Below are positions 5,037 to 39,488 of a stretch of DNA of 64,000 nt, in pieces. Numbering within the stretch: position 1 is the first letter of the stretch; each line of letters opens with the position of its first letter. The stretch comes from Haliclystus octoradiatus. Taxonomy: Eukaryota; Cnidaria; Staurozoa; Stauromedusae; Haliclystidae. Made by a program: the position numbers and the translations under genes. The stretch spans positions 188,501-252,500 of the forward strand of contig OU744452.1 in NCBI GenBank assembly GCA_916610825.1, in the 5' to 3' direction. Below the pieces are notes generated by a model. The model did not search any database, was not told the DNA's origin, and was given only the letters and a program-made list of their open reading frames with translations.

Positions 5037-5293
5037 TCAGGTATGTTTACTGCCTGCAAGGTACCATGTGCGTCTCAAAGAGCTAATCATTTGATAGTTA
5101 ACATATGCATCCACTTCTACATATGTATTTTGTTTTGTTTTAATTGTTGCTTTGTCTTCACGTTGTGAGACATTATCATTCATAAGTAGGAATATCTTTG
5201 ATACTGGCCGCTTTGCTGCATATTCATTAAGAAAGTTACACACGTCAAATATAAACCAAGTGCCAGTATATTTACCTCTCCATGACTTTTTAC
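5037..5293 (-). CDS. Exon 11: caspase p10 (small subunit) and stop
   Basis: The acceptor is TTCTTTATAG|GT at phase 1, and the stop is TGA at 5037. Joined to exon 10 it gives TPG followed by KKSWRG, then GTWFIFDVCNFLNEYA. This holds the substrate-binding Arg (SWR) and the Trp of GSWFI-type motifs. QMISSLRRTWYL matches the StLrkxlyF ending of caspases. The p10 domain is therefore complete, and the enzyme looks catalytically competent. Confidence 0.88.
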
Positions 5294-8200
5294 CTATAAA
5301 GAAGAATATTAGGATAAAGTTTCTGGATATAAATATATCCCTGCATCAAGGATACTTTTACTTATTTTAAGAACCTTTTTTTGCTATCAAGCTTGAACCA
5401 AATAAGCCTACGGTTACCCTCTGCAAAAAGCAGTTCCCGAACATGAAATAGTAAAAAATTTAAGGAACTGGTTCATGAACTGGAAGAACGTTGAATATGT
5501 CTTCACTAGTCCATGAACTATCGAGCGCAATCCTGCAATTTCATTGGTTGGTACATGTGTTTAGAAATCCTAGGATAAACACTTTCAAAACTTCCCAACA
5601 AAATTTGCCGATAATGTTTCTGAAGAAGAAGAGGAAGCTACAAAGTATTATTAAAGAAATAATATCCACAAATGCTGTCTCTATTTAAGAAAGAGTAACA
5701 TTGTAAAGTTTCATTTGATACAAGGACACAAGTAAGTAAAAATATTGAATTGAAATTGAGTTTTAAATGGTTATCACACTCTTGCGCAAATGTTTGTATT
5801 CATATTGGTTACACTCGAAGAAGATGAAGACACGGGTGAAATGTTGAAAGCACTTGTTGTAGGTAATGACAAAGCACAGTCAGTGTGATGCAGTGAATAC
5901 TCCAGCATTCACAGACGCACCGATTAGGCTAAAGTAACCATCCTCTTGGCCAAGAAATAACGTAACACATCCACTTTCATTATCAAATCTTCGCTTTCCT
6001 TTAGGGATGAGGCCAAAGTTGATGGATGAACTTTCACACCACTGACATCCTTTGTTTCCCACACACTGTCTGGTTTTAAAACGTTCAGTGATGCAGCTCT
6101 GTGAAGAAGCGGATGGGAAAGCTGACTGCCGTTAAGAGCCAAAAGCGCCACTAACACCAAAGATATGTGGATTCTTATTTTGAACTGATGTTGTGGAAAT
6201 CGCAAAGCCATATTTCAAATAAGCAGCATAGACATATAAACTGTGTCCGTCTTACTACGTAACGGGTAATTAGATCCCAGTCCTGATATTGATATTGATG
6301 TATTCTTCCAATGTTCTTATGATACTTTTTACTTAACATAGTGTTATCATTATCATCTCCTACATTGAGAACATGTAATAAATGTTTCTCCAGGGACCCA
6401 GGAACAGTATATAGCAAAAGTGACAACCCATGTTAATAAATGTAATACATCATCGGTTCTAATTAAACTTTCCCAGTATAATTGCTAACAGCCTGATATC
6501 CGTGGTAACATGGCCGCAATATATATTTAAGGAATACGGGTGTGATATTGGTATTACTCACAGCCAGACTGCATAATTAACGCAGACAGAAAAGATATGT
6601 TCATCACATCCATGATCATTTTACAAACGTTATCAAAGGAATTAGAGAAACACACAATAGCAGTCATGTTATTACTGTGCTCTAGAGTTGATTGGTTACA
6701 TGCTGACACACATTATAACAACCAGAGACGACTCTGCACATTTCATTGTTACCAAGATTTTAGTGAATTATCAACAAAATGATAATGTAGATAATCCATT
6801 TTTGAAGCTGAATTCAACCCCATTGAGCTACCCAATGCAAGTGGATTGGTTACATGTTAATGTAGAAGCCGAGTATCAATGTCGCTCTGCTGACCTCTAC
6901 TGTAAGGTCAACCTTACCTTATGAAAAAAATCGATGAGTTCATGAACATTTCATTGAACTGGTTTACAAACTTGTTAATGAATGTGAAATTGCCTGAACA
7001 CTTCATGAACTGGTTCACGAATTGGATCATGAATGTTAAATTGCCTAAAAGTTCATGAACACTTCATGAACTGGTCCATGAATGTGAAATTGCCTGATAG
7101 TTCTTAAACAGCTCATAAACTGGTTTTGAAATATGAATTCACCTGAACGTCCATGAAAAATTCATGAACTGGTTTACAAGTGGTTCGAGAGCTGGTTATG
7201 AATGTGAAATTGGCTGAAAGTTCATCAACACTTTATGAACTGGTTTACGAACTGGTTAATGAATGTTAAATTGCCTGAACACTTCATGAACTGTTCATGA
7301 ACTGGTTCAAGAGCTGGATCATGAATGTGAAATTGCCTGAAAGTTCACGAACTGTCATGAACTTTTGGGCAATGTCACGTTCATGGACTCATAATTTGAC
7401 CATAATTTTGTAAAATGATAATACTTGAAATAGTAGCACCACTTTATGAGTTAGTCATAGCGGCATCATCAACAGCAGGAGGGCATAATATAATCAGATT
7501 TTCCTTGTCACAGAATCGACTTTTACGTCCACTATACTAAACTGATACTGATCGCCTAGTCATTCAAGTCCAACAAAGCAACATAGGTTCACAGAAAAGG
7601 AAAATATTAAATGTACACATCACTTGTGTTGATATTTTGTATACTCACAATGCCGGTTAAAACCTTCATGTATTAAAAAAAATTTCTCTGAAAGTCTAAT
7701 CATAATTGTTTATAAATATTATGAAGATGTTATGACATACCTGGTGTTGCAGCGACCCACACCAACCAGTCAGTGTCGTCATTCACAGAGAATTTTGTAG
7801 ATTTGCCATCTGAATGAACATTCATTTGTGATACCATATCACTATCTTCTTCAGATGGACCATCACTTGTTAGATGCTTGGTGCAGGTTGGGCCTTGGCA
7901 TGCTTGAATAATGAACCACTTTGGCTTTCCTAACAATGATCGGCAACTACAGATCATTTTCCTTATGCCATGACTCTCAACTGTTCTTCCATCTACACCA
8001 TAAACACTACCTTCTTTGCCATGAGAGAGAATACACATGACAAAACAATTGTACTCAGTGTGATCCTGTGATCCTAGCTCTGCTGCCAAATCAATGATAT
8101 CACGGGCTTTCAGATTGCGATGTATAGATACATGAAATTCTAGCTTTTTAAATGTCTCTTTTAGTCTCTCCACGTCTACGTCACTGCCTTTCCGGTCATC

Positions 8201-11200
8201 CAGTTCCTTTCCTTTGTTAAATTCAACATTGTTTATAATAACACATAGGCCACGTGGAACACTTTCCATTGGGTAAACTAAAAAAGAATAAAAATATTAA
8301 TATATTATTTTGAAGGGCTGCAAATCCATCTACATTTTGTAGAAATTTGTAACTACAAACTTGATATTGAAGCAACTGATTGTTGATCAAATTACATGGA
8401 TTGGATAATGGTGGATCTTCATCATTGATCTTGCAAACTAAAGAAAACTTGAATCTTGCAATAAGAATAACAACTTTCAAGCAATCGTCGGACAATTGGC
8501 TTCTACAGCTGTAGAGGATTTTCAGTTGAATTTAATAGCCGCAACAAAACAGTTATGTAGGGCAAACAATTCATCCACTGGTGATGAGTTCAACTATCCT
8601 TAAATATACTCATTTTCTCTATAAGTACATTGGGTGGGGGGTTATTATATCTTCATTGTCGTATCTACGCATGCGCTATGATTGATGACATTTGATCTTT
8701 AATATTTTGTTTAATTGACACGTGTGCGTCAGTTGGTGAAAAGGGCTCGGTATGACCAGAGCAATATTAGACGCAGAAAACACACAATATGTACAAATTT
8801 ATCTAATTGTTTTTTAAAGTCATTAGAACTATCATTATCAATTGTAGTTTTTACTCATATACTTAACCATCACCTCATTTTTCTTATCATTTCTATTATT
8901 GATATTATCTATTAACATTAACCTTAGAAGTAAGTTAGAAGCATTGTTGTTTGGCATAACAAATTGGTTCTATTGTCTGTGTCTATTCATCCGTTTAAGC
9001 CGTCCTTATGTATCTGTCAAATCTCCAACTCAGTGTTACGTGACAAAATCAAAACTTGACAATTAGCCACGTACAAAATCATCCCTTAGTTAAAAATAGC
9101 TCCGCTACGCTCGGAATTATGGTGAATAAGATAATAATCAAAATAAACCAATTGAAATCAAATTCAATAGAATATCAAATCAATCAAATCATCATTCAAA
9201 GAAAAATCAAATCCAATCAAATTCAAAAAAGTAAATCAATCCAATTGAATGATATAAAAATCAGATCAAATAAAAAAATCAACTTCAATCAAATAAAATG
9301 AAATAAATTATAATAATATCCAAATAATATAATAATATAAAGAAAAATATATCCAAATAACAAATCAAAGAAGAAAAAAAAATGAGGGCAGACCGATGGG
9401 ATTGAACCCCAGACCCCGCACGCCTGATGCAGACGCTCCACCACTAGACCATACCAAGATAGAATAGAAGACGTGATTTTCACTACTTATAATACAGGTG
9501 TGAGTTGTAAATGACGTGCGACTTTGTCTCTTCTTGAGCTGATGTCGCAGCGGAATTAAAACATTTTAATAAACCAAATAAAATCATGACGACTGGCTTA
9601 GCAGTTTGATGTAATAAATAACTTCAGAAAACAATACAAACAATAAATATATAATGATGAATTGTCGGTTTAAAAGTTCTCATGGTCAAAACACAACAAC
9701 AATTATCTTCGAAGTTTCACCTCAAATAGTGATGTTACAGAACGATTAAAACCTTTTCATTAACCATTTCAAATGACGAGAAGAAGAAAACAATCATGTG
9801 TTCTACCAATGAAGAGATAATCACGATGTAAACTAATCCAGGAGTATTAGAAGACATTCCATTTAATAATGCAATTGTTATCTTGCTAAGCTGCGAGTCG
9901 GACATCATGACGGGCAATGGAAAAAAATTTATGTCAAAACAATTTGGCTAAAAATTTGGAATAATCACACAGCTTGCCCATTGTATTTTTAACAATAAAA
10001 TGGTGTTTCTTGCGCAATCGTTTTTTGTTCAACCTTTGTTAGCACGCAAAGCAGTATGTTGAACGTTATTTCAAAAGAACAATAGATTTAGTCAAAAATG
10101 AAATGAAAACGTTTCCACCATGACAGGATAGACTCAAGGTCACTTACGTAACCATGAGTCAAAAATAAACTTATCCCCTTACATATAACTTAAATATAAC
10201 GGTATACGCTGACAATGGTCATACGCTGATTCGCCCTTGGGGATCATTCAATGAAAAAATATTTGCAATGTACTTTGCTGCTATTGGAAATCTTTATAGG
10301 GAGACTTTTGGTGGAATCAGTATTGTTTTATAGACGAAATAGCCTAGGAAACAGAGGGGATCAAACAAGAGTGGGAGTTAGTCGCATTCAAAAAACAATG
10401 CGTTCCAACTGCATAATTGTGGTTCAAATATACTAGACAAGGACATCTGAATTGAATGATGCGACTAAAATTTCCCATATTGACATCAGTATTTCAGAAT
10501 CCATTGTTGCAAAATTTCCACTGGGCAAAATCAAAGTGAAATGATTTCAATGATGCATAGATACTGAAAGAAATATATCCTGAGGTACCGCGTTAAATAG
10601 GGTGTAGAAATTGCATTTGTAAATCTCTTTAGTACAACAGAATAAGATATATATGCATGTGTTAGTTGAATTTCAAGATTTTAGATGGAACAGATTAGAT
10701 GATATTTGTATGATATAATATTTTATAAAATATTGCTTCATAATTCTGAAATTTGCAATTTGATAGGTTGGAAATGTTTTGTAAAAACATTGTTACTCTA
10801 TATCTAAAAACCTTATTCGATCAGCATAGTCAACATAATCTAGATTGCCAAAATAGCAGACTTTTTAGTGAAGGACTTCAGGACACTTTCAATTAGGATA
10901 ATATCTTTGGCCAGATGTGGATTCTAAACTGGACTTGAAGATTTCAATATGGGTCGGCATAAGTGTTAAATGCAGATTAATAAATACAGATTTTTCAAAG
11001 TGAAACATTTTAAAATTAAGTAAGAAGGGGAGTATGCTTTAGAAGTTAACAATGAACAATGTTTAAATGATTTGAGTTCCAAAGTAAGAATGATCCCAAG
11101 ATCTTTGATTTGAGAAACTTCTTCGAGGTCATTATTAGCTAAAGAGTATACATTGTTTTGCAATTGAAGATTACAAACAGACAATACCCTTATTGACAAT

Positions 11201-14200
11201 ACTATTTTGCCATGCGTATTTAAATTGTACATTGACCTAAAGTCATTATCTGAATACATGGCAAGCGTAACGTGAAAAAAATTAATGTATTAAGGAGATC
11301 CAATCGGGCCCAATTTCTTCTCTTCAATCCTGATCAAACACCAGAAGTTGAAGATAATTGTCTCCATCATGATTTGTGTGGACATGAATAAGTTGGCAAG
11401 AATTAAAAGAACTCTCTTATTTCTACTCTTAGAAATGCAAACATCACAATATTCCTTCGACATTTCTTCCCTCTTTTGCCGACAAGGAAGATTTTCAGAC
11501 TGACCAAGTCGCCAGGGGGTTCACGCCCCCAATACCCCCATACTAGGGACGGCCCTACTGTGAATATGTAGGTAATCAGGATGAAACAAGTAACAGTTGG
11601 TTTCATAAAGAATAAAGATATATAGTACAGTCATTTGAAGCCAATATAAGCCTTAAGCTTTATCAATTTTAGGGTCAAAATTTTATGCTTAACAACATAT
11701 CCAAAATGTTTCAAAATCCGAGCCATCTATTTACAAAGTCACATAATGATGTCTTTTCGAGGAGCAAGCTATTGGTTCCTTAGTTCAATTTTATTTGACA
11801 TTTTTAATGGATACTTTTTCTGCAGGCCTTTCATCAAATCGTACTAGCCAATTTCTGTCAAAAATAATTGCGACCATGAACATCCCTAGGCATTTGCCTG
11901 GAAATTTTCATTGTGCATAATGTATATATCTAGTTGTATTTTCTAAATAAGATAAATAAAGTATTTACATGATCTACTGCTAGTGGAATGTTAAAACATA
12001 ATGAATAACAATTTTTACTGACAATGTATATGTTTTTCTCGTTTTTCTATGTCGATTTGTGTATCTTCGTACATTGCCTCGTTTTGGTAATTTGATACAT
12101 AGTGAGAGTGAAGAAATTTTAAGAATATTATATGATTCAAATGATGCAGGGCTATTACGTCTGATGGTATTCCCTCAAATTAAATCACATGATTGCAAGG
12201 AGACTTTACAGCCTCGCTTTTATGTTTCAACTGGGAATGCCATTAATCAAATTGCGAAATTAAGGCGTTTTGCGACATTACGACATTTTAATTAATAAAA
12301 AATATAAGTCAAAAATCGGACTGTCTAGTTAGAGTTATTTCTCATCGTAATTATAGATAAGAGTGGACAACGAATAATCCAATATCGGCCGCTGCCTCCC
12401 AGAGAGATATCACATGAACATCATATGCAAAACAAAAATGTACATAAACAGAGCTCTCAACCTTGTTCGACAAAAATGAGGGAGATTTATGGGGAGGCAG
12501 CCCAAAGACGTGGCTTCTTCAAGGGGGGTTTGTAGGCATGCTTCCTCAGAAAATCATTATCGATTTCAAAATTGTTGACTCACATTCTTCAATTGGCATA
12601 TCTTTTTCATCTTCATGATTTCTGTCTGCAATTGATTCAATTTGGTCTAAGCATAAAAGAAATTGAATCACATTAACAACATTAACATTATAGAATATTG
12701 CGTCATGATCCTGCAATTCGATTGCTTGGTTTGATTATTTGTAACCATCATACAACTTTATCACATATAATAAAAATATAGTTTGTTATGATTTTGTCTT
12801 TCTCTGTGTTCGTTTCTTGCAATCAGTTCAGATCTCACACCTTTGTTTTACAATATTAATTATTTATAACCATTGTACAACATTATTGTGTATAGCTTTT
12901 ATGAATTCATCTGCGTTGTCTCTGGCATCATATCCATCACAAATAGCCCTGGTGTGTGTGTGTGTAGATGTTCATGTCTTCAAGCATAGCTTTTTAAAAT
13001 TTGAATTTGATATCTTAAAGTATTCGTATTTTCCCGGGAATCGTTTTCCACTTAATTGTTGCTTTGATTCTTCCTTAATTTAATAGAACGAAGGAAAAAA
13101 CATTTTTTCCGTAGAGTTTTATTGTTTTCCTAATATATTTTGAAAGTGCGGGGGGTATTCTCATAACTATTAGCAAAAGAAGGATGAATGAAAGTGATCT
13201 GTTTGTTTGCTTTTATGAATGGAACTAAAGACAAAATATGTAGCCTACTGTCTATAACGAAGCATTTTTGTGATAGGATAAAGCTACAATTGATATTGAG
13301 GATATTTTCAAACCGGAAGAATATTACGATGCAATTGTTGAAATTGTAAAGTTCTAATTGAAATATTTTGTTCACATTTAAAATGTTTGTATTTCATCAT
13401 GACTTCACAACAAATGCTGACACTAAAGAATGTGTTGTGGTTTGTTTGTTGTCATATATATATTGTAACTTCCGTTTATCACATCGCTCTCTACATGTAA
13501 ATAATCAATTGCAAAATGTAATCTCTCTCTTTTCTTTTAACCGTTGTAGGGTCAACATCCTAATACATCACACATAATAACTATGTAGTTTTATCTATGT
13601 CTGAACCCTACAAGTTGTGAACCCAACATGTATTTATTTATCTATATTTTATAAAGCCTTCTGATTTGCTATAGTTATTCATTTATTATCAATTGGTTTT
13701 GCGAGAATATTCCACCTATTAATCGCTGATATTTCAACAACTAATTCGCTTCTTAGCATCAACTTTCCTTTTTCGTGGTAGAACTTGAGCAGCCCGTTAC
13801 ATTTCATAACTATTTCTAAAGTGTTAAGTCAGTCAACGATGATATTTACAAACAAACTATATACTGAAACAATCATAACAATATGCGTTATAGATATTAA
13901 TTAATTATACTTCCATGTTCTGGCTAATTGGAATCTTCTTGGCAAGTAATTACAAATTCTATGTTAAATTGTATCATTTAATATATCGAAAGCAGACATA
14001 ATTCTCCTTCTCCTTTATAATTTGATTCGTTTAAACATACAAATAATGCCTTATCAAAACATGCAACAGATATTACGCACAATCAACAAGATAATTTTCA
14101 AACGCAATTCAAAGCAAACAACATTTCAAGAATAACGTCGTTTAACTACACAATAAATAATTCAATATAATATCGAATGCTGATTAACAACTACTGGACT

Positions 14201-17200
14201 GTCGTATCTATTGAGACATATATAAATTTAACTCATATTTAGTTTTAATGTTTTTGATAATTCAATTGATGTTTTTGTTAACTGTGACTCCGTCTTTGTA
14301 GGGGGAGCCTATGCAGTGGTTTGTTTGTTGTCATATATATTTTGTAACTTCTGTTTATCATATTCTTCTCTACATGTAAATAATCAACTATAATATGTAA
14401 ACTCTCTCTTTCTTTGTAACCGTTGTAGGGTCAACACCCTAATACATCATTATAATAACAACTGCGATAATAACTATGTAGTAATATAAATGTCCGAACC
14501 CTACAAGTTGTGAACCCGACGTGTATTTATTTAGCTATATTTTATAAAGCCTTCTGAACTTGGTGGAGATTTGCTATATATTTACAAACAAACTATATAC
14601 TGAAACAATAATAACAATATGCGTTATAGATATTAATTAATTATACTCCCATGTTCTGGCTAATTGGAATCTTCTTGGCAAGTAATTACAAATCCTATGT
14701 TAAACTGTATCATTTAATATATCGAAAGCAGACATAATTCTCCTTCTCCTTTATAATTTGATTCGTTTAAACATACAAATAATGCCTTATCAAAACATGC
14801 AACAGATATTACGCACAATCAACAAGATAATTTTTTAAAAGCAATTCAAAGCAAAGAATATTATCAACAATAACGTCGTTTACACAATAAATAATTCAAT
14901 ATAATATCGAATGCTGATTAACAACTACTGGACTGTCATATCTATCAAGACATACATTTAACTCACTAGATTTCGAGTTGCATGCAAATGCATGCTTATA
15001 TTGAGTTGTGAATCATCTGACTTAACTGGTTCAAATAAATGCATGAAAAAATCTATGTAGAAAAGATGATTGAAGCCGAAATTTAATTCAGAAATTATTC
15101 TATTTTATTTTTTGCTGTTCAAAGAAGCAAAAAGTTGAGAAGTGAAAAGTGGAAGTTAAATAGCCATACACCCCCCCCCCCAAAAAAAAAAAATCAAAGA
15201 AACATTTCTAACCCGAGTGTCATAAAGCTGCAAGGTAACAATTTTTGGGGGTTTGTCTAAATTTTATCATGTTCCACCTAACAACACGGTCACATCCCGA
15301 AAAAATTTGATTGATCATTTTTTTATCTATAACGTGGTTATTCAACATTTGACTCAAGTGACTTCTGAAAAAGTATAGAACGAGAAACTATTTATCATCT
15401 TTACATCTTATTTCATTAATTACTGTCAATGCGCATTATTATTATTAATATTTTAATTTATTTGTTGTCACTGATGAAGTGGAAGTTGGTATTGCAATTG
15501 CTTCTATATTTTAATTAACTTTCATTGCAGTACTGTACAATTTAACACTGGCTGTAATAATCAGGAAACATTTTTATTTTATATCTCCGTAATTTAATTT
15601 CCATAATGTTTGTTTACAAATTTCATAACCTTCTATTCAAGTCATTTTCAGATAATAATTTATGATAAATCAATAAAAAATTTCCAACTGAAGATAAGAT
15701 GATGACACATCTTATTTGTTTCACTTTCATATAAATATACATGTTGTTTTGTTTGTTTACGTTTGAATTTCATTCTGATAATTACTACGATGAAAATACA
15801 AAAATTATCTGTCACATCGCAACAAAGGATTGTGCTGTTTTGTATTTGCGAGACAATAGAAATTCATTCAAGTGCGAAACTGCTTAGTTAGCGCTTCAGT
15901 CTGAGAAAGCATTGTTGTTGAAAAGGAAACAGTTTTCATTGTTTTTTATCAACTTCGATGTATTTATTTAAGAAATGAAGTCGGCCATATACGCCTCTGG
16001 TTAATAACGAACCCATTGATATGTGTTTCAAGTCAATTGCATCAAAAATGGCACCGTGAATCCTCGCCTTACATACGGACATACAAATGGAAATAGCGTA
16101 AATTTAAAAGTAGATATTTAGTTTTAATGATTTTGATAATTCAATTCATGTTTTTGTTTACTGTGACTCCGTCTTTTGTAGGGGGAGCCTATGCAGTGGT
16201 TTGTTTGTTGTCATATATATTTTGTAACTTCCGTTTATCATATTCTTCTCTACATGTAAACAATCAACTGTAATATGTAATCTCTCTCTTTCTTTGTAAC
16301 CGTTGTAGGGTCACACGCTAATACATCACACACAATAACTATGTTTATAGACATGTCTGAACCCTACAAATGTTTTAGCATTTGTTGTGAAATATGAAAT
16401 CTCTTCTTAGAATCTACAATTTTCTGAATGTTTGCGACACATTCAAAATAGCGCTAATAAATCGCTCCCTGAATATATGGTAATACAGTCTTTCAAATAA
16501 TAAATTATATAACAGATACTTTTTATGTGAAGGCCTGAAACTGGTTACTTGTCAACCAATTAAATGCCAAAAGCAATTGGATATCATAATACTAACAAAA
16601 CAGTGGTTATGTAAATGTGTTACCTTTTGGTGGAAATATTAGAGTAGATGAGATCATTTTGTGTTCTTTCTTACACCACACTTCATTATCAGTCATCTTC
16701 TCATGATTTTGGAGATCAAACATAGATGGGATCTCATCCGGTTTTAGATTCAAGATACAACTTGGACATAGAGATCGACATTTGATAGAACCAAGGCCAG
16801 GTAACCTTTCCAAAAACAATCTTGTTATCTAAAAAGAAATTTAAATAGTGACATGATCTGTTCATTTTCTTCCCCTTCTGAGTTCATAAACTGCTGAACT
16901 ATTAAAGAATCTCACAAGTTGTTCATGAACGGTTTATGAAATTGGGTCTATCTTTTTATCAATAATCAATCTTAGAGGGTACAGTATCTTTTAATCCAAC
17001 AACTGTTGTGCACTTTTATCATAAACTCCAGTTTTGCGATTTTCAGAATTGCAGTATTTCAAAAATGTTTCCTTTGCATTATGTTCTATATTTTGTTGTT
17101 CTTCATATAGATACGCGCAAGAGTAAAATCCAGACAAAAGAGAGGAAAACCTATGAAAACCTCATCAAAACAACAGTTTTACAAGAGACATGTGTTCTCT

Positions 17201-26200: not shown

Positions 26201-29200
26201 CAAATAATGAGAACATGAATTGCTATCATCTTGTGTTTTGTGAAGCTAATGCAGGATTTCAATAGTTACTATAAATGTTATTTTTATATTGACGACTCTA
26301 TTAATTAATACTAAATTCATTTACTTCAATTCCGGTCAACGGCGTATCGATGTACGCAAAAGATGTTTTATCTCTGTTATGCAGGAAAACAATTACTTTT
26401 GTTTTTATTTTGTAAATGTTTACATAAGACAATCCAATTTGAGATGATAGATTAATCATAATTTATTGAGAAGCCTTTTGCAGATTGAGATTTCTTTCCG
26501 TAGTCGTAAATTTGTGAATTCTTTGCTCCATATCGTGGCCTCGTCAGACAATGCATGAATGACTTTAGTTCCACCTGAAATGCTGACTTTGTTTGTTTAA
26601 TTGTAAGAAAGTACTCATCATTCAAAATTGTCGAGGAAGTTCAATACTTGGATTTTTAGGTCTAAGAAAGTAAACATTTGCATTTGCCAACTTTTCTCAG
26701 TTTTAGTTTTGTTGAGTATCTTCTTGCTTCATTCCCCAGCTGAAGCAGATTGTTGCTTCATTTGATATATGTGAGCAAGATAATTTTGATGGGAGTGTTG
26801 TTAGTTACCAGACGCTTCAATTATATTTAACTGCTAAAGATTGAATTTCTATGCCTATTTGCTGCCTGAATAATAATTATCCAGAAATTCTAAAAGTAAT
26901 GTCTAATTATATTTTAATGCCTAACCTTCTGTAAAAAATAGCTGATGAGTAATGATATATCTCCTTTGTCCTGCACAATCCACAATCAGTGCCTCCAGAG
27001 GTTCAACATCATTGATTTTGGGTCTAATCTTCCATTTGCATAAATCGATACCTTCTGTTCTATTTTCACGATCAATGTCTTCACCTTTGCAGTCAACTAA
27101 TGCTTTGCAGAGACTAGTCTTGCCTGAAATATAAAGATTGAGTCATTGGCATTGCAGAAACAAACAGTGATTCTCTTGACGAAAATATAATACAATTTTA
27201 TATAACTTTTTGACACCTACTCCACCCATCTTCAATAATTTTGTACTCAAAACGATGATAAAAGTTTGGGATAATGAAGCCAAAGAAGCTTTTTCAAGCG
27301 TTTAATTAAATAAAATTTAGTTTGATTATTTATGTAGACGGCAAACTTAAAATGATATCATGATCCCTTCAAAATTTTTGACAATTCAAATTTGAGTTTC
27401 ACTATCTTAATTCTTATTATAGTATCTTAGGCAATGGCTAAACGGCGTATTTCGAGCGAAAATAACGCAGAACATAAAGTAATCAGTTCTAAGTACATTA
27501 ACATTTTGATTTTATTTAAATAAAACTTCTTTAAAGTTATTTAACTGAAAATTCTTCTCAATATTATCTTAAGGCTACGTAAATCATTTCAATTTTCGAT
27601 TGTTATTTCTTGAACAGTGGATGCTTATTGCTTCTGTATGCTGATTATTATCTTGAATGGCTAGTAACAATCAAAGAAAAAAGCAATCGATTTTCTTCTA
27701 AGAATTTGTTCATAATTTTCGAATGAAACTTACTATGTTATATCACAGTATATGAGTTATTACCACACTCAAAATTAATCATTTCGTCAGATTGATGGCC
27801 CTATATTTAATTTTGTGAATTTTAAATCGCTCAAGATAAAAGATAACTTATTCCTGTTTAAAAAAGATTAAAATTTTATAACTTGGAGTAGACTGAGCAC
27901 AACAGAACTAAAACGGCAGGTTTCTCCGGGCAAATAGAAATTCACATAAAATGTTCATAAAGAATACAATAAATACTTTCCCGTTTCTTGTTTTGGTTAA
28001 ATTTTATTGAGCTCACCAGAGATGAATTTATAATTCGTTTCACGGTCAGAGCCTTCTCAATTCATACATTTTGTGTTTTCGCCATGCTTCTATGGATTCT
28101 CAAAATCTTTGGAGAACAAAAGAATCAAAGACCATGAAGCTCACATGCAGCATTTTCTCAAAATGATAAGAAGGCTTTGACCTAGAATCATGAAATATAA
28201 ATTGGATTTTTGAAGGGCTTTATTAAAACAAGAAATAGGTAATTGTTTAGCATATTTTTATGAGCAAGTTTATGTAATTTGCAAGTTGCCCGGAGAAACC
28301 TGCCGTTTTGGTTCCGTGGCGCACGGTCTAGAGGGGAAACAGCGGAAGTCATAGGTGAAACTGCAAATTTTAGAGTGAAAATGCTGCAAATGACAACTTA
28401 AGAACAATATTCTGACACCAGCTTGAATGAATCTATTGGGAATTCAATTGAATTTGCATAAATATTGATTATTTGGTCTACGTTGCTGATCGCTTTGATA
28501 GGAGAAGCAGCTGGAATCCAGATTGAAACTGCAAATTTGAGAGAGAAAATGCTGCAAACGACAATTTGAGAAAGATTTTTCTGACTCAAGCTTGAATAAA
28601 TCTCTTGGGAATACAATTGAATTTGCATAAATATTTAATCAAAGCTGTGGGTGATAAATACGATAAAGTTGTGTTACATTCTGAAGATCTTATTGCTCGT
28701 ATAAAATCATATTTTCATTTCTGAATACATTTTGGATAACTGTTTCTAGTTTAGTTGGCTCTGATCGCTTCTTTGCATGAAAGAGCTAACTTAAACTTCA
28801 ATGTATAAAGTGTCTGTGCTGAAGCTGTCAAATATTTCCACTCAACATGTATTTACATACTATTGAAATTCCTTACAGTAGTGGCAAATGAAAATTGCTA
28901 TAGAACTAGTTCTTTCGAGACAAAACAATTAATTATAAATGTTTTATGAATGTTTAATTTTAGGATGCGTGCAATGTATTTTAATACTCATTACATTGTA
29001 TTATATAATATTAAATGTTGGGCCCATAATGATAGGTACTTTTTTCCTTGCCTTTTTCATATTAAAAATCGCCAACAAAAATGGGATGAAACACGTATCT
29101 GATGTGATACAGAGGGTCCAACAAAAGTGGGGATCCTAGATCCTGGAAAGTTAGAGCAAATTCAAAAGAGAATGGATAATTTATAATTTTTAAAAGAAAA

Positions 29201-32200
29201 TGTTTTAGGATTCTGTAAGCTCAATCTTCTGTCAGACACTGGTGATACAGTAGTATTAAAAATCTTATGGAATCAGTGTGAAATAATGTCACTAAGGCTC
29301 CTTGGAAATGATTCAATGAACAACAAATACAAATGAGCAGGGATCAAAGTACAACAAATTGTTCATTCTCTATTATCAATCATTTATTTCATCATTCAAT
29401 GGTATTCAAGGTTGATATAAATTTTTATTTCATATATCATTGGAAATCAGAAACATGGACTTAAAAATGCAATAATCAAATCTCAAAACATTCACATTTT
29501 GATTGTATTTAAATAAAAATTCACAGTTACTTAAATGCAAACTCTTCTCGACATTATCGCAAAGCTAAGTTCGTAATTTTTATTTCCAATGAGTATTTCT
29601 TGAACAGAGGATCTTTATTGCTTCTGTATGTTGATTATTATCTTGAACATGGCTTGTAATACTCACAGAAAAGCGAACGATTTCCTTCCACGAATTTGTT
29701 TATAATTTTTAAATAAACTTAGGATATCATATTGTCTCATGACGAAAACAAATATCTTTGTCTCATGCCATTGGGAACAATAGTTTGTTTATGTAAAACG
29801 CACTAATCAGAAAATTTAATTTATATCCGCCTGTTTAGCGCGCTTCAAGTTTTCAAACATCTCGAAGGTGTATTTAAAGGCGTAAATACTGCATTAAATA
29901 CGCCTGCATTATTTTCGCTCATAATACGCCGTATAGCCATAGCCTAACAAATAATAAAAGTGGATTGAAGGTGTGAAAGTTCATTTGATGCTTCTTGGAA
30001 AGTGCTGAACTAATATTATAGCCACAATTTCAGAATTATTTATGCAATGAAATGTTGACTAGGTTTCAATAAAGTTAGCTATCATACAACAATGTCTATT
30101 GAATTACTGTGGAAATCAATTAATCTGGTGTGGTTCACAAATATATTTTATGTTTCTAGAATTGGTGCGTAAAGCATTATATAGGTGGTAGAATAAATCA
30201 ATAATTTCAATTGTAAAAATAATCCAAACAACGAAGCTACTTTAAGTTAAGAAAATTAAACAGTTTCAAGTTATAAGCTAATGATCTCTGAATAGGATTC
30301 TGATCTGATGTAATACGGATTATAAAAAATTTAAATACTGATCTATAGAGATATAATACAGTCAGAAGTAGTAGTTAATCATATTAAAATATTATTAATC
30401 AAACTTATCAAATTAAATACAACATTTGGAAAATTTGAATCAAACAACACTAAATTCCAAAAGATACCATGAAAATTAAATGAGCTGCTAACAATAAAGT
30501 AAGGAGAGTTACCTTACAATAAGATTGTCATTTTGAAAGCACACAACAACACCTAGCTATTTAATTGTTGTAAACAATAATTCTGAAAAGAAGCTAATTT
30601 TCAGCACTCCATTGTGCATAAGATAGATTACAATTAAGAAGTAAGAAGCCTGTAATTAATAATCAAACTACCGTATTTTCCGGTGTATAAGTCGATTTTC
30701 TAGCCTCAAATTTTCAAGCTAAAATCAAGGGGTCGACTTATACACCGAGTCTACAAATTAGGACCCAAAATCAAAGACAAAAACGACAACAATACAATTA
30801 AATCCTATATATAACGGACAACCTATATTGTTCATATTGTCCGTATTGTTTTGAAAGTAATAAAACTATTTTTCAGACAAGCGATTTCAAAACAATTGTA
30901 TGAATGAATGATAAATGTAATTCAAAGCTGATGTGATCAAATTACGTTGAATTCTTTGTTTGCTCAAGTGTAAAAGGTCAACACATAAAGCGAGCAAGAC
31001 TTGACAACTCGACAAACACGGAGAGAATATCTTGGACTACAATACTAAATCTTGAATTATATTTCCAATTAATTTACTTGGAAGCTGATCTGACCGATAT
31101 ATCAAGGCTAAATCATCCATGAATATAGTACTAGTTTTGATATTGGTTTCACAAAATACATTTTACCGCTTGTTTGTTGATCTTGAGACAAAGGAAAAAG
31201 ATCGAAAAGCCGTAAAGTTCCAAAATGATTATACAAACATTATTGAAAATAAACAAAATTAAAACGATTCAGAACATGATGACTATGATTTAAATTCGGC
31301 TTATACAGAGAATATACCTTAAAACCTAGAAAATGGAGCCCAAAAACAGGTGTCGACTTACACACCGGAAAATACGTAGCTTATAAAACGAAATTAATCT
31401 TCACAAATTACTAAACTAATCTATCAGACATCACAACAAGAGATAAATTAAAAGCAAACAATTTACCTGCCATCGATTCCCCAATCAAAATACATTTCGA
31501 TCTGTTGCTATGGAATCCATTAAATTTATTTAACGCTTCAAAGTAACCAACAATTGAATCTAATCCTTTTTTACATATTTCGTAGGGTGGTTTTTGCAAA
31601 GGATTTCCATTAATATCTAATTCAATTAACGATTTCAATTCTGTTATGCTTTCTGGTAAAAAAGTTAATGAATTATTAGCACAATCTAATTCCTCTAACT
31701 CAATAAGATTTCCAATGTCATCTGGTAACGATAACAGCCCGTTGTAACTAATATATAATACATTTAACGCTTTCAAATTTGATATTGAATTAGGTAATGT
31801 TTTGATGCTGTTACGTAATAGATAAAGTTCCTCCAATTTCATATCATTATTTGTAATTTCTGGAAACGACGTCAATTTATTGTTATTAATATATAATTCA
31901 GTTAACGAGTTCATATTTGATATTGAATTAGGTAATGTTTTGATGCTGTTAAATGATAGATAAAGTTTCTCCAATTTCATATCACTATTTGTAATTTCTG
32001 GAAACGACGTCAATTTATTGTTATAAATATATAATACATTTAACGCTTTTAATTTTGATATTGAATTAGGTAATGTTTCGATGCTGTTGTATGATAGATT
32101 AAGTATCTTCAATTTCATATCATTATTTGTAATTTCAGGAAACGACGTCAATTTGTTCCTGCTCAAATCTAAATGTATCAACTGAATCAAATTGTTTAAT

Positions 32201-32748
32201 ATATCATCTGGGAATTCTTTGATTGAGTTACAACTTAGATCAAGACTTTGTAAGTTTGTTAGATTGATAATCTCATTTGGGAGTGTGTTAAGTCCACAGT
32301 TAATAAAACCTAAATGTTCCAGTGATTCCAAATTAAAAATAACACTTTTCATATTCTCAATGACAAGTTCCGTATTTGATATATCCGACTCAATCGAATA
32401 TATCGAACAAAGCCGAGCAGCAAAATTCTTGTTCAACTTTTGCGTTTGCGACAAGTATTCATTTCTTTTAAATTGTATCGCTTTAACATTTCTTATAACA
32501 TCATTAAAATTCCTTGAGATTTCATCCCCAACTTTGATGTTAGATAAGACAATTATAACAGGATAAATATAGTAACCATCTTCTTTGCCAAGAAATAACG
32601 TAACACATCCACTTTCATTATCAAAACTTCGCTTTCCTTTATCGAGAAGCAAGTTCCACAAATGAATAAATGCCGTATCACATCCAATTTCATTGTCAAA
32701 TCTTCGGCTTCCTCTATGGGTAAGTAACTTCCGAATATGATTTAACAT
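5037..32748 (-). CDS. Roco-caspase fusion gene: LRR - Roc GTPase - COR - caspase, 11 exons
   Basis: I assembled this gene by hand from GT-AG splice sites on the minus strand. Exons: 32748-31467, 27123-26926, 22970-22609, 22284-21761, 18530-18314, 17700-17446, 16828-16624, 12646-12584, 8437-8396, 8277-7741, 5293-5037. The coding length is 3942 nt (about 1313 aa), and every junction keeps frame. Predicted order: unknown N-terminus (1-110), LRRs (about 110-405), Roc (about 415-610), COR (about 615-1010), linker (about 1014-1048), caspase p20 and p10 (about 1048-1313). The Roc part has the P-loop GESMAGKTS, the switch Thr (RTEGID), DCAGQ and THLD. The caspase part has the four expected active-site residues. 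By family knowledge, Roco proteins are GTP-regulated dimeric sensors and caspases are Asp-specific proteases, so a fusion suggests ligand-triggered protease activation. The join between exon 7 and the caspase half is inferred; exon 7 could instead end at a stop at 16607. Confidence 0.7.
5294..5925. other. Last intron, left part
   Basis: This is intron DNA of the Roco-caspase gene. It holds isolated TTCATGAAC-type motifs (about 5400-5520) and no coding exon that I can support. Confidence 0.4.
5926..6062 (-). pseudogene. Stray copy of a Roco exon-1 segment
   Basis: The minus strand encodes GKRRFDNESGCVTLFLGQEDGY, almost the same as residues in the N-terminus of exon 1 (about 32575-32640). The DNA is also near-identical over about 75 bases. 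It lies in the last intron in the same orientation as the gene. No flanking splice sites or longer homology are evident, so I read it as a duplicated fragment rather than an exon. Confidence 0.6.
6925..7390. repeat. Minisatellite rich in the palindrome TTCATGAA
   Basis: About seven degenerate units of roughly 60-70 bp share the pattern TTCATGAACTGGTT(C/T)A then GAATGTGAAATTGCCTGAA. TTCATGAA is its own reverse complement, so the array can fold on itself. Related motifs occur near 5450, 16900, 17215, 25080 and 26100, and densely at 37.6-37.96 kb. It lies in the last intron. Confidence 0.8.
7741..8277 (-). CDS. Exon 10: caspase p20 (large subunit)
   Basis: The acceptor is TTCTTTTTTAG|TT and the donor ACCAG|GTATGT, phase 1 at both ends. 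It reads YPMESVPRGLCVIINNVEF, the classic caspase opening. The substrate-pocket Arg lies in DRKGSDVDV, the catalytic His in LSHGKEG (near 8022) and the catalytic Cys in QACQG (near 7899). QACQG differs by one residue from the common QACRG. An inter-subunit stretch follows with several Asp residues (SEEDSD, VHSDGK, NDDTD) that could be processing sites. The exon ends in WVAATPG, the start of the p10 fold. Confidence 0.93.
8396..8437 (-). CDS. Exon 9: short linker exon before the caspase
   Basis: The exon has 42 nt, with acceptor TTTTCTTTAG|TT and donor CCAT|GTAATT; phase 1 at both ends. It encodes about 14 residues (CKINDEDPPLSNP). It joins in frame to the FYPMES start of the caspase fold. Like exon 8 it could be skipped without a frameshift. 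Confidence 0.5.
9120..9302. repeat. Low-complexity AATCAAAT-type repeat
   Basis: The region is a degenerate run of AATC/CAAAT words with almost no G. It creates a meaningless Lys/Asn/Ile-rich open frame. It lies in intron 8 next to a tRNA-like sequence. Confidence 0.7.
9384..9455 (-). repeat. tRNA-like sequence (SINE relic or tRNA pseudogene)
   Basis: On the minus strand there is an A-box-like TGGTCTAGTGGTGGAGC and a clear B box, GGTTCAATCCC. A 5-bp anticodon-like stem encloses the loop TGCATCA (CAT, Met-like). The acceptor arms do not pair well, and a T-run follows. It is therefore more likely a tRNA-derived SINE head or pseudogene than a working tRNA. Confidence 0.6.
9484..10960. other. 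Intron 8 DNA without recognised features
   Basis: This is AT-rich intronic DNA. Short open frames (for example 10251-10436 plus) show no recognisable motifs, and I see no repeat copies elsewhere in the window. Confidence 0.35.
10940..11262 (-). mobile_element. LINE reverse-transcriptase fragment
   Basis: A minus-strand frame contains EVSQIKDLGIILTLELKS followed by FKHCSLLTSKA. This matches the conserved 'vKDLGvxldxxLxfxxHixxixxkA' segment just beyond the RT core in Jockey/CR1-type LINEs. It is short, 5'-truncated and inside intron 8. Confidence 0.7.
11500..11565. repeat. G/C-rich dispersed repeat end
   Basis: The words CCCCCATACTAGGGACGGCCC and nearby GGGGGTTCACGCCC are shared, in inverted orientation, with 33712-33770. 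A looser match lies near 62620. It is probably the terminus of a dispersed element whose body I cannot trace. Confidence 0.4.
11628..12300. repeat. Repeat copy related to the arms of the 35.8-39.1 kb foldback element
   Basis: The start (AGTACAGTCATTTGAAGCC) and the body (TTCTGTCAAAAATAATTGCG, CTAGTGGAATGTTAAAA, TCTATGTCGATTTG) match both arms at 36433-37022 and 38380-38945, in the right-arm orientation. An internal part is missing. It is a solo or deleted relative of that element, inserted in intron 8. Confidence 0.7.
12584..12646 (-). CDS. Exon 8: short acidic linker exon
   Basis: The exon has 63 nt, with acceptor TTATGCTTAG|AC and donor GAAT|GTGAGT (a near-ideal donor); phase 1 at both ends. 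It encodes about 21 residues, strongly acidic (NHEDEKDMPIEE). Its symmetric phase means it can be skipped without losing frame. It has no family match; I accept it because of its splice sites and phase. Confidence 0.55.
13436..14230 (+). repeat. Local segmental repeat, copy A
   Basis: The segment starts with GTGGTTTGTTTGTTGTCATA and recurs at 14235-14965 and, in part, at 16110-16375. It contains GTAGGGTCAACATCCTAATA and later AACCCTACAAGTTGTGAACC, a short inverted pair around AGGGT/ACCCT. It lies in intron 7 and has no coding content. Confidence 0.8.
14235..14965 (+). repeat. Local segmental repeat, copy B
   Basis: This copy matches copy A over most of its length, including ACAAACAAACTATATACTGA and GCCTTATCAAAACATGCAAC, with small indels. 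It also carries the upstream part (TGACTCCGTCTTTGTAGGGG) that it shares with copy C. The tandem layout suggests unequal exchange. Confidence 0.8.
14966..16109. other. Intron 7 DNA between repeat copies
   Basis: This is AT-rich sequence with a C-run/A-run homopolymer junction at about 15169-15195. No gene or matching repeat was seen. Confidence 0.4.
16110..16375 (+). repeat. Local segmental repeat, copy C (partial)
   Basis: The copy begins TTTAGTTTTAATGATTTTGA and carries the GTGACTCCGTCTTTTGTAGG block, then the same TTTGTTTGTTGTCATATATA block as copies A and B. It ends soon after CCCTACAAATG. Confidence 0.8.
16624..16828 (-). CDS. Exon 7: Cys-rich tail after COR
   Basis: The acceptor is TTCTTTTTAG|ATAACA and the donor AAAAG|GTAACA. 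It starts at phase 0 and ends at phase 1. The product has a likely zinc-binding pattern, CRSLCPSCILN then EVWCKKEHKM, as seen after COR in animal Roco proteins. If the donor is not used, the frame ends six codons later at 16607, which would make a conventional Roco protein. Both forms could exist. Confidence 0.75.
17446..17700 (-). CDS. Exon 6: distal COR domain
   Basis: The acceptor is TTCTTATAG|GAACAA and the donor TTCAAG|GTTTGA, phase 0 at both ends, 85 whole codons. The motif FPPGLFENFMAYIYH matches the FPxGLFxR segment that closes COR domains of MFHAS1-like Roco proteins. A stop codon follows directly in the intron, which supports the donor. Confidence 0.85.
18314..18530 (-). CDS. Exon 5: middle of COR domain
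   Basis: The acceptor is TCTCAATCTAG|G and the donor ATACA|GTATGT. It starts at phase 2 and ends at phase 0, which fits exon 4 exactly. Residues include IFNCLVDILCHFKLFIKLN and ILLVPWFLKSL. This is the usual COR pattern of a helix followed by xLVPxxL. A downstream frame near 21.5 kb was tried as the next exon and failed on phase, while this one fits. Confidence 0.85.
18700..19600. other. Intron 4 DNA without recognised features
   Basis: This is AT-rich intronic sequence. The open frame at 19206-19406 (plus) has no recognisable motif and no codon signal I trust. Confidence 0.35.
19610..19985. repeat. Truncated copy of the 27.9 kb TIR element
   Basis: Long blocks (TTCATACATTTTGTGTTTTCG, CATGAAGCTCACATGCAGCA, AGAAGGCTTTGACCT) match 27980-28320. 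The right terminus ends GGAGAAACCTGCTGTTCTGG, matching the right TIR there. The left terminus is missing. Confidence 0.75.
20028..20680. repeat. Inverted-repeat element
   Basis: The left arm at 20028-20112 contains CCCAATCACAGCACACCTTGG. It is the reverse complement of the right arm at 20580-20680 (CCAAGGTGTGCTGTGATTGGG), with TCAAAAATATGG in both. The spacer of about 470 bp has no gene. It is likely a non-autonomous foldback or MITE in intron 4. Confidence 0.75.
21761..22284 (-). CDS. Exon 4: end of Roc and start of COR domain
   Basis: The acceptor is TTTTTAAAG|GCACATCGC and the donor CTCCTAAG|GTATTT; it starts at phase 0 and ends at phase 2. Recognisable Roco features are the end of the Roc domain (VLPVSTKGVLTGMDELKEEI) and the COR core (LLHLDAVGSSLYF, VFLNPKWFINILKALFTH). 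COR is the dimerisation module that couples GTP state to output in Roco proteins. The segment IPKVYEQLEEF is also typical of COR starts. Confidence 0.9.
22609..22970 (-). CDS. Exon 3: Roc GTPase, G4 region
   Basis: The acceptor is TGCATTTAAG|GC and the donor AAAG|GTATTA. The exon starts at phase 1 and ends at phase 0. It continues the Roc fold with LFLLVVNLYDYEE, then SPIIIVPTHLDK, which holds the T-x-x-D nucleotide-specificity motif. An acidic insert (VEVGDDDCSSG) follows the G4 region. The exon ends in AVLHFKGK. Confidence 0.88.
23345..24589. mobile_element. TIR element with TA target duplication (Tc1/mariner-like, non-autonomous)
   Basis: The left end GGGGAGAGCGGGGTGAAATGG and the right end CACCCCGCTCTCCCC form terminal inverted repeats of about 25 bp with a few mismatches. 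A TA dinucleotide flanks each side (23343-23344 and 24590-24591), as in Tc1/mariner insertions. The 1.2 kb interior has only a short, motif-free open frame (23633-23908), so I see no transposase. It is inserted in intron 2. Confidence 0.75.
25560..26105 (-). mobile_element. LINE 3' fragment (after RT core)
   Basis: The minus strand reads IYSGILKPHLDYGLAIWGN, then INELHKRCIRILCG. This matches the 'lyxxlixPhldYgxxvWg...lqkrxiRxi' segment near the end of LINE ORF2 proteins. There are frame breaks on both sides. It is a 5'-truncated relic in intron 2. Confidence 0.75.
26926..27123 (-). CDS. Exon 2: Roc GTPase, motifs G1 (end) to G3
   Basis: The acceptor is ATATTTCAG|GC and the donor is GAAG|GTTAGG, phase 1 at both ends. 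Across the splice the P-loop completes as G-K-T-S. The exon then reads RTEGID (switch I Thr) and LIVDCAGQRRY (the DxxGQ of switch II). It contains no stop. It has 65 whole codons and was too short to show as a standalone gene. It matches the Roc (Ras of complex proteins) domain, which binds GTP. Confidence 0.88.
27425..27740. repeat. Dispersed repeat, copy 1 (left terminus present)
   Basis: The copy starts GGCAATGGCTAAACGGCGTA then GAGCGAAAATAACGC. The body (TGCTTATTGCTTCTGTATGC, GATTATTATCTTGAA) is shared with 29490-29730. The terminus occurs inverted at 29905-29945. Confidence 0.65.
27901..28314. mobile_element. Small TIR element (MITE), full-length copy
   Basis: The left end AAAACGGCAGGTTTCTCCGGG and the right end CCCGGAGAAACCTGCCGTTTT are inverted repeats. 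The interior (about 350 bp) matches 19610-19985. There is no open frame of note. Superfamily not assigned; the duplication is unclear (GCAC on both sides is a weak candidate). Confidence 0.7.
28360..28640. repeat. Two-copy tandem repeat of about 165-170 bp
   Basis: The blocks GAAACTGCAAATTTxAGAG, AAAATGCTGCAAA and TCAATTGAATTTGCATAAAT occur twice in the same order and orientation, about 170 bp apart. No coding content was recognised. Confidence 0.7.
29490..29945. repeat. Dispersed repeat, copy 2 (right terminus present)
   Basis: The body matches 27500-27740. The right end (TTTTCGCTCATAATACGCCG then TATGGCC-like) is the inverted form of the left end of copy 1. Together they define an element with TIRs of about 35 bp. 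Confidence 0.6.
30671..31376. mobile_element. TIR element with TA duplication (Tc1/mariner-like MITE)
   Basis: The left end CCGTATTTTCCGGTGTATAAG and the right end CTTACACACCGGAAAATACG are inverted repeats. TA flanks both sides (30669-30670 and 31377-31378). The 0.7 kb interior is non-coding. It lies in intron 1, about 90 bp from the end of exon 1. Confidence 0.75.
31467..32748 (-). CDS. Exon 1: N-terminus, leucine-rich repeats and P-loop
   Basis: The ATG at 32748 follows an in-frame TAA a few codons upstream, which supports it as the start. The first about 75 residues hold two copies of a short motif of the type RRFDNExGC, whose role is unknown. About eleven leucine-rich repeats follow, of the LPxxIxxLxxLxxLxLxxN type. 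They include three 46-residue units with nearly identical sequence (SFPEITN-S/N-DMKL). The exon ends in KCILIGESMAG, the first half of the P-loop. The donor is GCAG|GTAAAT, phase 1. LRRs usually bind ligands or partners, so this would be the sensing end. Confidence 0.9.
31795..32160 (-). repeat. 138-bp tandem repeat inside the LRR coding exon
   Basis: The word GGAAACGACGTCAATTT begins at about 31863, 32001 and 32139, a period of exactly 138 bp (46 codons, two LRRs). The units are nearly identical. Repeat number could change by unequal exchange without breaking the frame. Confidence 0.85.
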
Positions 32749-33019
32749 GGTATCAGTAATTTAGGCACAATTAAGAAAATTAATTATAACAACGTAAGCT
32801 ACGATGCGGCGATTCTACCAACATATCTCCAAATGTAAGATGGGGAAATAACCGCCTTGATTTTCATTTTCTCTAAACATGGGCGTGAACACGTGATTGA
32901 CAGAAGTTGGTAGAATCAAATCGAGGCAAAAGGCCAGACCGCTGACCGGAAAGAGCCAGATAATTCCAAATGGCCAGTATTGCGTAACTATGCTTGAATA
33001 ATGCTTAAATAATTCATTT

Positions 33020-39089: not shown

Positions 39090-39353
39090 AGTAGTATAAA
39101 ACAGGGGCTCGCACGATCAAAGGAATATGGGTACAGGAAACACGTAGACATCACGTGATCTTCATTCTAAAAATAGGCATCATACGACGAAAGAATGTGG
39201 GTACAGGAAGTAGATGAATATCATGTGATTCTAGTCTAAAAATAGGCATCATACGACGAAGGAATGTGGGTACAGGAAGTAGATGAATATCATGTGATTC
39301 TAGTCTAAAAATAGGCATCATACGACGAAGGAATGTGGGTACAGGAAGTACAA
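39090..39353. repeat. Polinton left TIR with 69-bp tandem units
   Basis: It contains about four tandem units of 69-70 bp; GGCATCATACGACGA begins at 39176, 39245 and 39314. Two units are identical and the outermost is diverged. It matches 53009-53272 base for base in inverse, then diverges after GTACAA. Confidence 0.95.
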
Positions 39354-39488
39354 GAATATCATATGATTTTCGAAAACAGTATTATTGAAAAAAAATTGAT
39401 TTCGTGCTTTTATACCTTTTTTTTTTGGGGAAATTAAAAAAGAAATATGTGATCTGACGTTATCCATTGCATAATGCATCAGTTTTAC

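What the first reader, a model, noticed from the sequence alone, without database searches (positions are those of the whole stretch)
5037..32748. A Roco GTPase apparently fused to a complete caspase
Eleven minus-strand exons join with matching phases at all ten junctions into an LRR-Roc-COR-linker-p20-p10 protein of about 1313 aa. Roc motifs G1-G4 and the caspase Arg, His, Cys and Arg are present. Roco proteins carry many output domains (kinase, death-type), but a caspase output is not one I know as an established class. It would be a direct LRR-sensor, GTP-switch and death-protease chain in one polypeptide.
Basis: partly seen in the sequence, partly recalled or inferred. Interest (0 to 1): 0.88.

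Follow-up and report, generated by a model that had tools for sequence, protein, structure and literature searches.

The report
Jellyfish LRR-GTPase-caspase gene family
In a stalked jellyfish, a protein that appears built to sense, switch and then cut (leucine-rich repeats, a Roco GTPase and a complete caspase in one chain) is encoded by a tandem family of genes, and a fossil cDNA copy elsewhere in the genome shows that such a fused transcript was once made.

Summary
Its eleven minus-strand exons rebuild to 1313 aa with 10 of 10 phases matching, giving LRR, Roc, COR and a caspase with its catalytic motifs. Contig lengths point to Haliclystus octoradiatus (Staurozoa), chromosome 7. 16 of 17 caspase p20 places on that contig have a same-strand COR-A exon within 35 kb upstream; 0 of 17 have one on the opposite strand. 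Six of six siblings fetched keep the order of exons 2-8, 10 and 11. On another chromosome an intronless, degenerate sibling copy joins LRR, Roc, COR, linkers and p20; 8 of 9 joins fall at exon ends, so a fused spliced transcript existed. A Roco-Death gene in the same genome has the same phase-1 intron at the COR end, with a Death exon instead of linkers and caspase: an output-domain swap. Caveats: exon 9 is uncertain, no RNA was seen for the window gene, mechanism is inferred. LRR-Roc-COR-caspase is already reported in bacteria, LRR-caspase in amphioxus; I found no animal Roco-caspase in what I searched.

The parts
32749..32848 (-). probable 5' UTR; transcript start near 32848 (inferred)
   Evidence: similarity between the retrocopy and the window, and four sibling genes, begins at the same point, L027rc 261
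31467..32748 (-). exon 1: start codon, N-terminal segment, LRR domain, first part of Roc G1 (GESMAG)
   Evidence: same start codon in retrocopy L027; repeats spaced 138 nt in the LRR part
26926..27123 (-). exon 2: Roc G1 (GKTS), switch I, G3 (DCAGQ)
   Evidence: Pfam Roc; 6 of 6 siblings
22609..22970 (-). exon 3: Roc G4 (THLD) and Roc end
21761..22284 (-). exon 4: COR-A
   Evidence: Pfam COR-A 42.5 bits on the ORF
18314..18530 (-). exon 5: COR
17446..17700 (-). exon 6: COR-B region
   Evidence: 98.8-100% in the three type A siblings, about 42% in the three type B; aligned with related Rocos
16624..16828 (-). exon 7: end of COR (CPSC...PPK), phase-1 donor
   Evidence: donor kept in 7 of 7 genes and at the same place in the Roco-Death gene
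12584..12646 (-). exon 8: 21-aa linker, phase 1-1
   Evidence: counterparts with the same acceptor and donor in 7 of 7 genes; joined in the retrocopy
8396..8437 (-). exon 9: 14-aa linker, phase 1-1, uncertain or optional
   Evidence: 3 of 7 genes; absent from the retrocopy
7741..8277 (-). exon 10: caspase p20 with Arg, His (LSHG) and Cys (QACQG)
   Evidence: Pfam C14 117.9 bits; aligned with caspase-3; motifs in 7 of 7
5037..5293 (-). exon 11: caspase p10 with SWR, then stop
   Evidence: Pfam C14 23.2 bits; 7 of 7 genes with the same acceptor phase

Best explanation
This is a member of a tandemly expanded family of Roco-caspase genes: LRR sensor, Roc-COR GTPase switch, short linkers, and a complete caspase, in one polypeptide. 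Shown here: the family, the conserved splice pattern, a past spliced transcript of a sibling gene up to p20, intact catalytic motifs, pairwise dN/dS below 1 in the Roc-COR and p20 parts, and a Roco-Death gene with the same intron at the swap point. Inferred: the family arose when linker and caspase exons took the place of a Death exon at that phase-1 intron. Inferred too: it works as a direct intracellular receptor-protease. A ligand on the LRR changes the Roc-COR nucleotide and dimer state, this brings two caspase domains together, they activate by proximity as caspase-8 and caspase-9 do (recalled), cut their own p20-p10 linker (an SDG seen in the three sequences aligned is a candidate site), and trigger death or another proteolytic response. 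Confidence about 0.95 for the fused gene family, about 0.55 for the mechanism.
For: Exon rebuild and domains. Pairing of COR-A and p20: 16 of 17 p20 places on C8; 15 of 15 inside the 3 Mb cluster against a mean of 2.5 and a maximum of 9 in 5000 shifts. 6 of 6 fetched siblings keep exons 2-8 and 10 in order and exon 11. 0 stops in the exon matches listed; Arg, His, Cys and SWR motifs in 7 of 7. Retrocopy L027 joins exons 1-7, an extra exon 7b, 8 and 10; 8 of 9 joins coincide with GT/AG exon ends in at least two of three type B genes. dN/dS for Roc-COR is 0.14-0.16 between types in the five pairs where dS could be computed and 0.30-0.64 within types; for p20 it is 0.33-0.55. Roco-Death gene with the same phase-1 intron. 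4 of 16 database relatives of the Roc-COR part, among them the best three, list a Death domain and 0 of 16 a caspase.
Against: No RNA was seen for the window gene. The retrocopy belongs to a sibling of the other type, is degenerate, stops before p10, and its 3|4 join was not resolved. 19 of 36 COR-A matches have no p20 match within 35 kb downstream, so not every Roco here is shown to have a caspase. dN/dS for the LRR exon is 0.59-1.57, which could be relaxation as well as adaptation. The sign of the switch may be the reverse of what I state: the title of PMC11052575 (listing) speaks of GTP-driven monomerisation of a bacterial LRRK2 homologue. No biochemistry of GTP control over a caspase was found or done.
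Confidence: 0.82

Rival explanations
1. Two separate neighbouring genes, a Roco and a caspase, duplicated together as a pair; the joint reading frame is accidental and the retrocopy records a rare read-through.
For: Long stretch between exon 7 and exon 8 (about 4 kb in the window; about 11.5 kb in a1992); exon 10 has an early Met; an in-frame stop follows exon 7.
Against: The stop after exon 7 is not at a conserved place but the donor is; exon 8 keeps a phase-1 acceptor in 7 of 7; no conserved block that looks like an alternative first exon was seen with two query genes, and exon 7b, which lies between in five siblings, is itself phase 1-1; retrocopy; same phase-1 donor used internally in the Roco-Death gene.
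Confidence: 0.06
2. The window copy itself is a decaying or silent member although the family is real.
For: Transposon-like ORFs close by; exon 7b not found in the window copy; LRR dN/dS up to 1.57 against f1900.
Against: No stop in the 1313-codon frame and AG/GT at every border; p20 dN/dS 0.44-0.55 against the six siblings.
Confidence: 0.15
3. The protein is made, but GTP keeps the caspases apart or the caspase serves as a scaffold, rather than GTP switching the protease on.
For: PMC6337361 (figure legend seen) proposes GTP-bound monomers for LRRK2; the title of PMC11052575 (listing) speaks of GTP-driven monomerisation of a bacterial homologue.
Against: Against a mere scaffold: catalytic motifs are kept in 7 of 7 genes. 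The sign of the switch is not tested.
Confidence: 0.25

Closest known systems
Bacterial LRR-AP-GTPase(Roc)-COR proteins with C-terminal effectors including caspase (PMC8195603, passage seen)
   Same: same order of LRR, GTPase, COR, then a caspase-type effector; several paralogues per genome with different effectors
   Different: bacterial; I did not see the individual proteins; here a metazoan-type p20-p10 caspase, many introns, and a Roc-COR whose best relatives are animal
Animal LRR-Roc-COR-Death proteins (P0005; P0006, named MFHAS1 homologue of Actinia tenebrosa; P0011 of a Branchiostoma hybrid), and the Roco-Death gene at C1:25.72 Mb of the same genome
   Same: Roc-COR relatives: P0005 and P0006 align through the end of COR (P0011 was not in that alignment); the C1 gene also shares the exon borders of exons 2-7
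   Different: end in a Death domain (C1 gene), not a caspase
Amphioxus LRRs-caspase and TNFR-caspase hybrids (PMC2575513, passages seen)
   Same: sensor joined directly to a caspase, called a shortcut
   Different: no Roc-COR mentioned in the passages seen; the term GTPase does not occur in its main text
Actiniarian LRR-Roc-COR-TIR gene NG1 (PMC5094078, passages seen)
   Same: cnidarian Roco with an immune-type output domain
   Different: TIR instead of caspase
P0016, metagenomic LRR-Roc-COR-CHAT protein
   Same: Roco with a C-terminal CHAT domain (33.1 bits, cut-off 24); that CHAT belongs to the caspase clan is recalled
   Different: CHAT rather than caspase; source organism not named
Brown algal ROCO group 3 with a C-terminal peptidase domain IPR009003 (PMC11378527, passages seen)
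   Same: LRR-Roc-COR with a C-terminal protease
   Different: IPR009003 is trypsin-like (recalled), not caspase

Membership tests
Roco (Roc-COR) proteins | Roc domain directly followed by COR | tested here: met
   Roc 56.1 bits and COR-A 41.6 bits, both over the curated cut-off, in order; COR-B did not score
Roco (Roc-COR) proteins | G1, G3 and G4 motifs of the GTPase | tested here: met
   GESMAGKTS, DCAGQ and THLD read in the sequence and aligned with relatives
Roco (Roc-COR) proteins | GTP binding and hydrolysis | not testable with these tools
   no assay
Caspases (Peptidase_C14, p20-p10) | p20 followed by p10 with catalytic His and Cys | tested here: met
   150.9 bits; aligned with caspase-3 at LSHG and QAC; 7 of 7 genes
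Caspases (Peptidase_C14, p20-p10) | Arg residues of the substrate pocket (p20 R in DDRxGSD, p10 SWR) | tested here: met
   7 of 7 genes; their role in the pocket is recalled
Caspases (Peptidase_C14, p20-p10) | cleavage after Asp | not testable with these tools
   no assay
Roco-Death (LRR-Roc-COR-Death, MFHAS1-like) | C-terminal Death domain | tested here: not met
   no Death match in the 1313-aa model at E 0.1
Bacterial LRR-AP-GTPase-COR-caspase | same domain order | tested here: met
   domain order of the window gene against the published description
Bacterial LRR-AP-GTPase-COR-caspase | common descent as a fusion | not tested
   no bacterial member was compared and no tree built; the best Roc-COR relatives found are animal

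The most novel reading that the evidence does not exclude
Staurozoans have evolved a large, still diversifying class of cytosolic receptors in which each gene is a one-piece inflammasome: LRR exons vary and move between genes, two anciently split Roc-COR switches are shared out, and each receptor carries its own caspase, an animal counterpart reached independently of the bacterial LRR-Roc-COR-caspase defence proteins.
Probability: 0.5. Interest if true: 0.86.

Novelty: new variant of a known kind. Interest (0 to 1): 0.7.

Why it matters
Roco GTPases (the LRRK2 family) are thought to switch an output domain by a nucleotide-driven dimer change, but how the switch reaches its output is hard to test. 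Caspases turn on when dimerised (recalled), so a natural Roco-caspase would be a ready-made reporter of that switch. It would also show an animal receptor family that goes from sensing to protease without adaptors, parallel to bacterial proteins thought to act in defence. The genome also suggests how it arose: an output swap at one phase-1 intron.

Tried and rejected
Rejected: a two-gene reading (see rivals); chance joining of the tiny exon 8 (conserved in 7 of 7). Exon 9 stays open. Led nowhere: sigma-70 promoter scan on an animal gene; a protein search for Roco-caspases elsewhere with the caspase part and full-length size limits, which gave 1 match of 477 candidates, a Scortum barcoo protein whose domain list has PF01335 (DED) and no Roc or COR; a single-sequence Roc-COR search, 3 weak matches of 5498 candidates; the C6 caspase nearest outside C8 among the loci compared, where 7 kb upstream gave no match to exons 1-9. 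The profile search scored 7996 candidates (those sharing most words) and gave 16 matches; 0 of 16 list PF00656, 4 of 16 list Death, and 4 of 16 are named MFHAS1 or its homologue. These searches need shared 5-residue words, so absence is weak evidence. Paper searches: (51 came from a wrong first guess, tunicates; one found the genome paper). Passages only were seen of PMC8195603, PMC7159879, PMC6337361, PMC11378527, PMC3196919, PMC2246300, PMC2575513, PMC5094078, PMC3308963, PMC9334734 and PMC9975415; no supplements were open. No structure prediction was run, because the spliced protein is not letter-for-letter in the window. No tree was built. In one search I used 26 of the 35 C14 matches; the 9 dropped rows are p10 or partial pieces (two of them are the p10 exons of C8 genes).

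Full report
What was checked. The eleven exons were rebuilt from the sequence. All borders are AG/GT and 10 of 10 phases match, giving 1313 aa. On the joined protein Pfam gives LRRs, Roc, COR-A and Peptidase_C14, each over its cut-off. Against solved structures the C-terminal part aligns with caspase-3 over p20 and p10, with the His, the Cys and the SWR arginine in register.

Where it is. The window lies at C8:188501-252500 of a genome of 261,861,806 bases in 33 contigs. Contig lengths C1 = 39,977,743 and C5 = 28,991,210 equal the longest chromosome and the N50 printed for Haliclystus octoradiatus jrHalOcto1.1, which also has 33 scaffolds, and C8 (21,348,345) fits its 21.35 Mb chromosome 7 (PMC9975415, passages seen). 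The total printed there, 261,898,343, is 36,537 bases larger than the copy searched here. So this is a stalked jellyfish (Cnidaria, Staurozoa); the identity is inferred from these lengths.

A gene family. A six-frame search for Peptidase_C14 gave 35 matches and for COR-A 36. Of 26 p20-type places (9 p10 or partial rows dropped), 17 lie on C8. 16 of these 17 have a COR-A exon on the same strand within 35 kb upstream; 1 of 17 has one downstream on the same strand within 35 kb; 0 of 17 have one on the opposite strand within 35 kb. Inside the 3 Mb cluster it is 15 of 15; shifting the caspases along the cluster gave a mean of 2.5 and a maximum of 9 in 5000 trials. Of the 9 p20-type places off C8, only the retrocopy is paired (all). 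Against a simple picture, 19 of 36 COR-A matches have no p20 match downstream; both searches are lower bounds by the tool's own statement.

Siblings. Six of six have exons 2-7, an exon 8 and exon 10 in order; exon 1 was found in five of six. There are two Roc-COR types: A (window, a1992, b1412, d2058; siblings 87-100% to the window in exons 2-7) and B (c2313, e2150, f1900; about 37-64%). Exon 7's phase-1 donor and exon 8's phase-1 acceptor and donor are kept in 7 of 7. The p10 exon with the same acceptor phase is present in 7 of 7. The exon matches listed hold 0 stops (exon 1 is missing there for b1412, exon 8 for a1992, d2058 and e2150 at that cut-off), and the Arg, His, Cys and SWR motifs stand in 7 of 7; exon 1 of c2313 and d2058 and exon 3 of d2058 match only in part. 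With the window and c2313 as queries, the longest plus-strand block shared between type A and type B genes from exon 7 to exon 10 is the 180-270 bp or so around exon 8; a few others of about 50-130 bp are shared too. Linker exons vary: 7b in five siblings, two exon 8 copies in b1412, exon 9 in three of seven genes. All linker exons are phase 1-1, so they can be gained or lost without breaking the frame.

The natural cDNA. C4:10861501-10867500 holds an intronless type B copy. It runs through exons 1 to 7, then 7b, 8 and 10. Tested against the type B genes, 8 of 9 joins coincide with GT/AG exon ends in at least two of the three genes; the 3|4 join was not resolved. Its similarity to the window and four siblings starts at one point, about 100 nt before the start codon. 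It has frame changes in the LRR part and two stops in the Roc part, so it is a relic. After exon 10 it runs into a tyrosine-recombinase ORF (Pfam matches below the cut-off) of a mobile element; 29 of 43 matches listed for that ORF, this one included, are near full length at 92-100%. In the two other copies read, the bases before that point are an acceptor-like ...GGCAG|G, so exon 10 appears to have been spliced into the element. The relic shows that LRR, Roc, COR, linkers and p20 were once in one spliced RNA; it does not show the p10 join, nor the window gene itself.

Origin. One Roco gene on C1 matches exons 2 to 7 in order, with AG/GT at the borders looked at, and ends exon 7 at the same PPK with a phase-1 donor; a phase-1 Death exon follows. 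It was the only COR-A and Death pair on one strand that I noticed in the two lists (Death gave 14 matches). The best database relatives of the Roc-COR part are animal proteins, some named MFHAS1 homologue; the best three and one more of 16 list a Death domain, and 3 of 4 that I rescanned have one. The plain inference is that linker and caspase exons replaced a Death exon at this intron.

Selection. Nei-Gojobori estimates: Roc-COR between types 0.14-0.16 in the five pairs where dS could be computed (dS 2.5-3.0, close to saturation; the other seven pairs were saturated), within types 0.30-0.64; p20 0.33-0.55; LRR exon 0.59-1.57 (exon 1 of b1412 not available). By dS the window's LRR and p20 exons are closest to those of f1900, a type B gene (0.042 and 0.128), while the Roc-COR parts of the two are saturated; by dN the LRR of d2058 is marginally closer, over fewer codons. 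So LRR and caspase exons seem to have been exchanged between the two types. These are simple pairwise estimates with no test of significance.

Function. Recalled: caspases such as caspase-8 and -9 are activated when brought together. Roco proteins change between monomer and dimer with the nucleotide (PMC6337361, passages seen), and GTP may favour the monomer (title of PMC11052575, listing), so the sign of the switch is open. The most likely working is LRR sensing, Roc-COR switching, caspase dimerisation, self-cleavage, then a death or other proteolytic response. Only the domain content and its conservation are shown here; the rest is inference.

Novelty. The bacterial order LRR-Roc-COR with a caspase among the C-terminal domains is in print (PMC8195603, passage seen). 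Animal LRR-caspase hybrids (PMC2575513) and cnidarian LRR-Roc-COR-TIR (PMC5094078) are in print too. I found no report of an animal Roco-caspase in the listings or in the passages seen; these cover only open-licence PMC papers.

Noticed in passing
window 39089-53273: A Polinton/Maverick-like element: terminal inverted repeats of 271 nt, 100% complementary, with long ORFs that look like polymerase, capsid, ATPase and integrase genes (named from recall). Described only.
   Followed up: no
window 54545-60967: An LTR retroelement with an 1810-aa ORF (BEL/Pao-like by recall) between two identical 300-nt direct repeats, so probably a recent insertion.
   Followed up: no
window 2-2488 (-): An 829-aa ORF of a LINE-type reverse transcriptase at the window edge (named from recall).
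   Followed up: no
L027 (C4:10861501-10867500): A DIRS/Ngaro-like (by recall) tyrosine-recombinase element seems to have captured a spliced host Roco-caspase transcript; sequence found near other copies of the element lies on both sides of it.
   Followed up: partly
L028 453-2699 (-): A 748-aa open frame with Ig-like and caspase-like parts, resembling the paracaspase MALT1 (from recall; only its C14 match was computed).
   Followed up: no
C8:7966187-7966660 (-): The one p20 place on C8 without a COR-A match within 35 kb upstream (nearest 164 kb).
   Followed up: no
window 5930-6003, 32568-32641, 32643-32716, 33123-33196: A 74-nt segment of the N-terminal part of exon 1 recurs about 0.4 kb upstream of exon 1 and in the last intron of the gene.
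   Followed up: no
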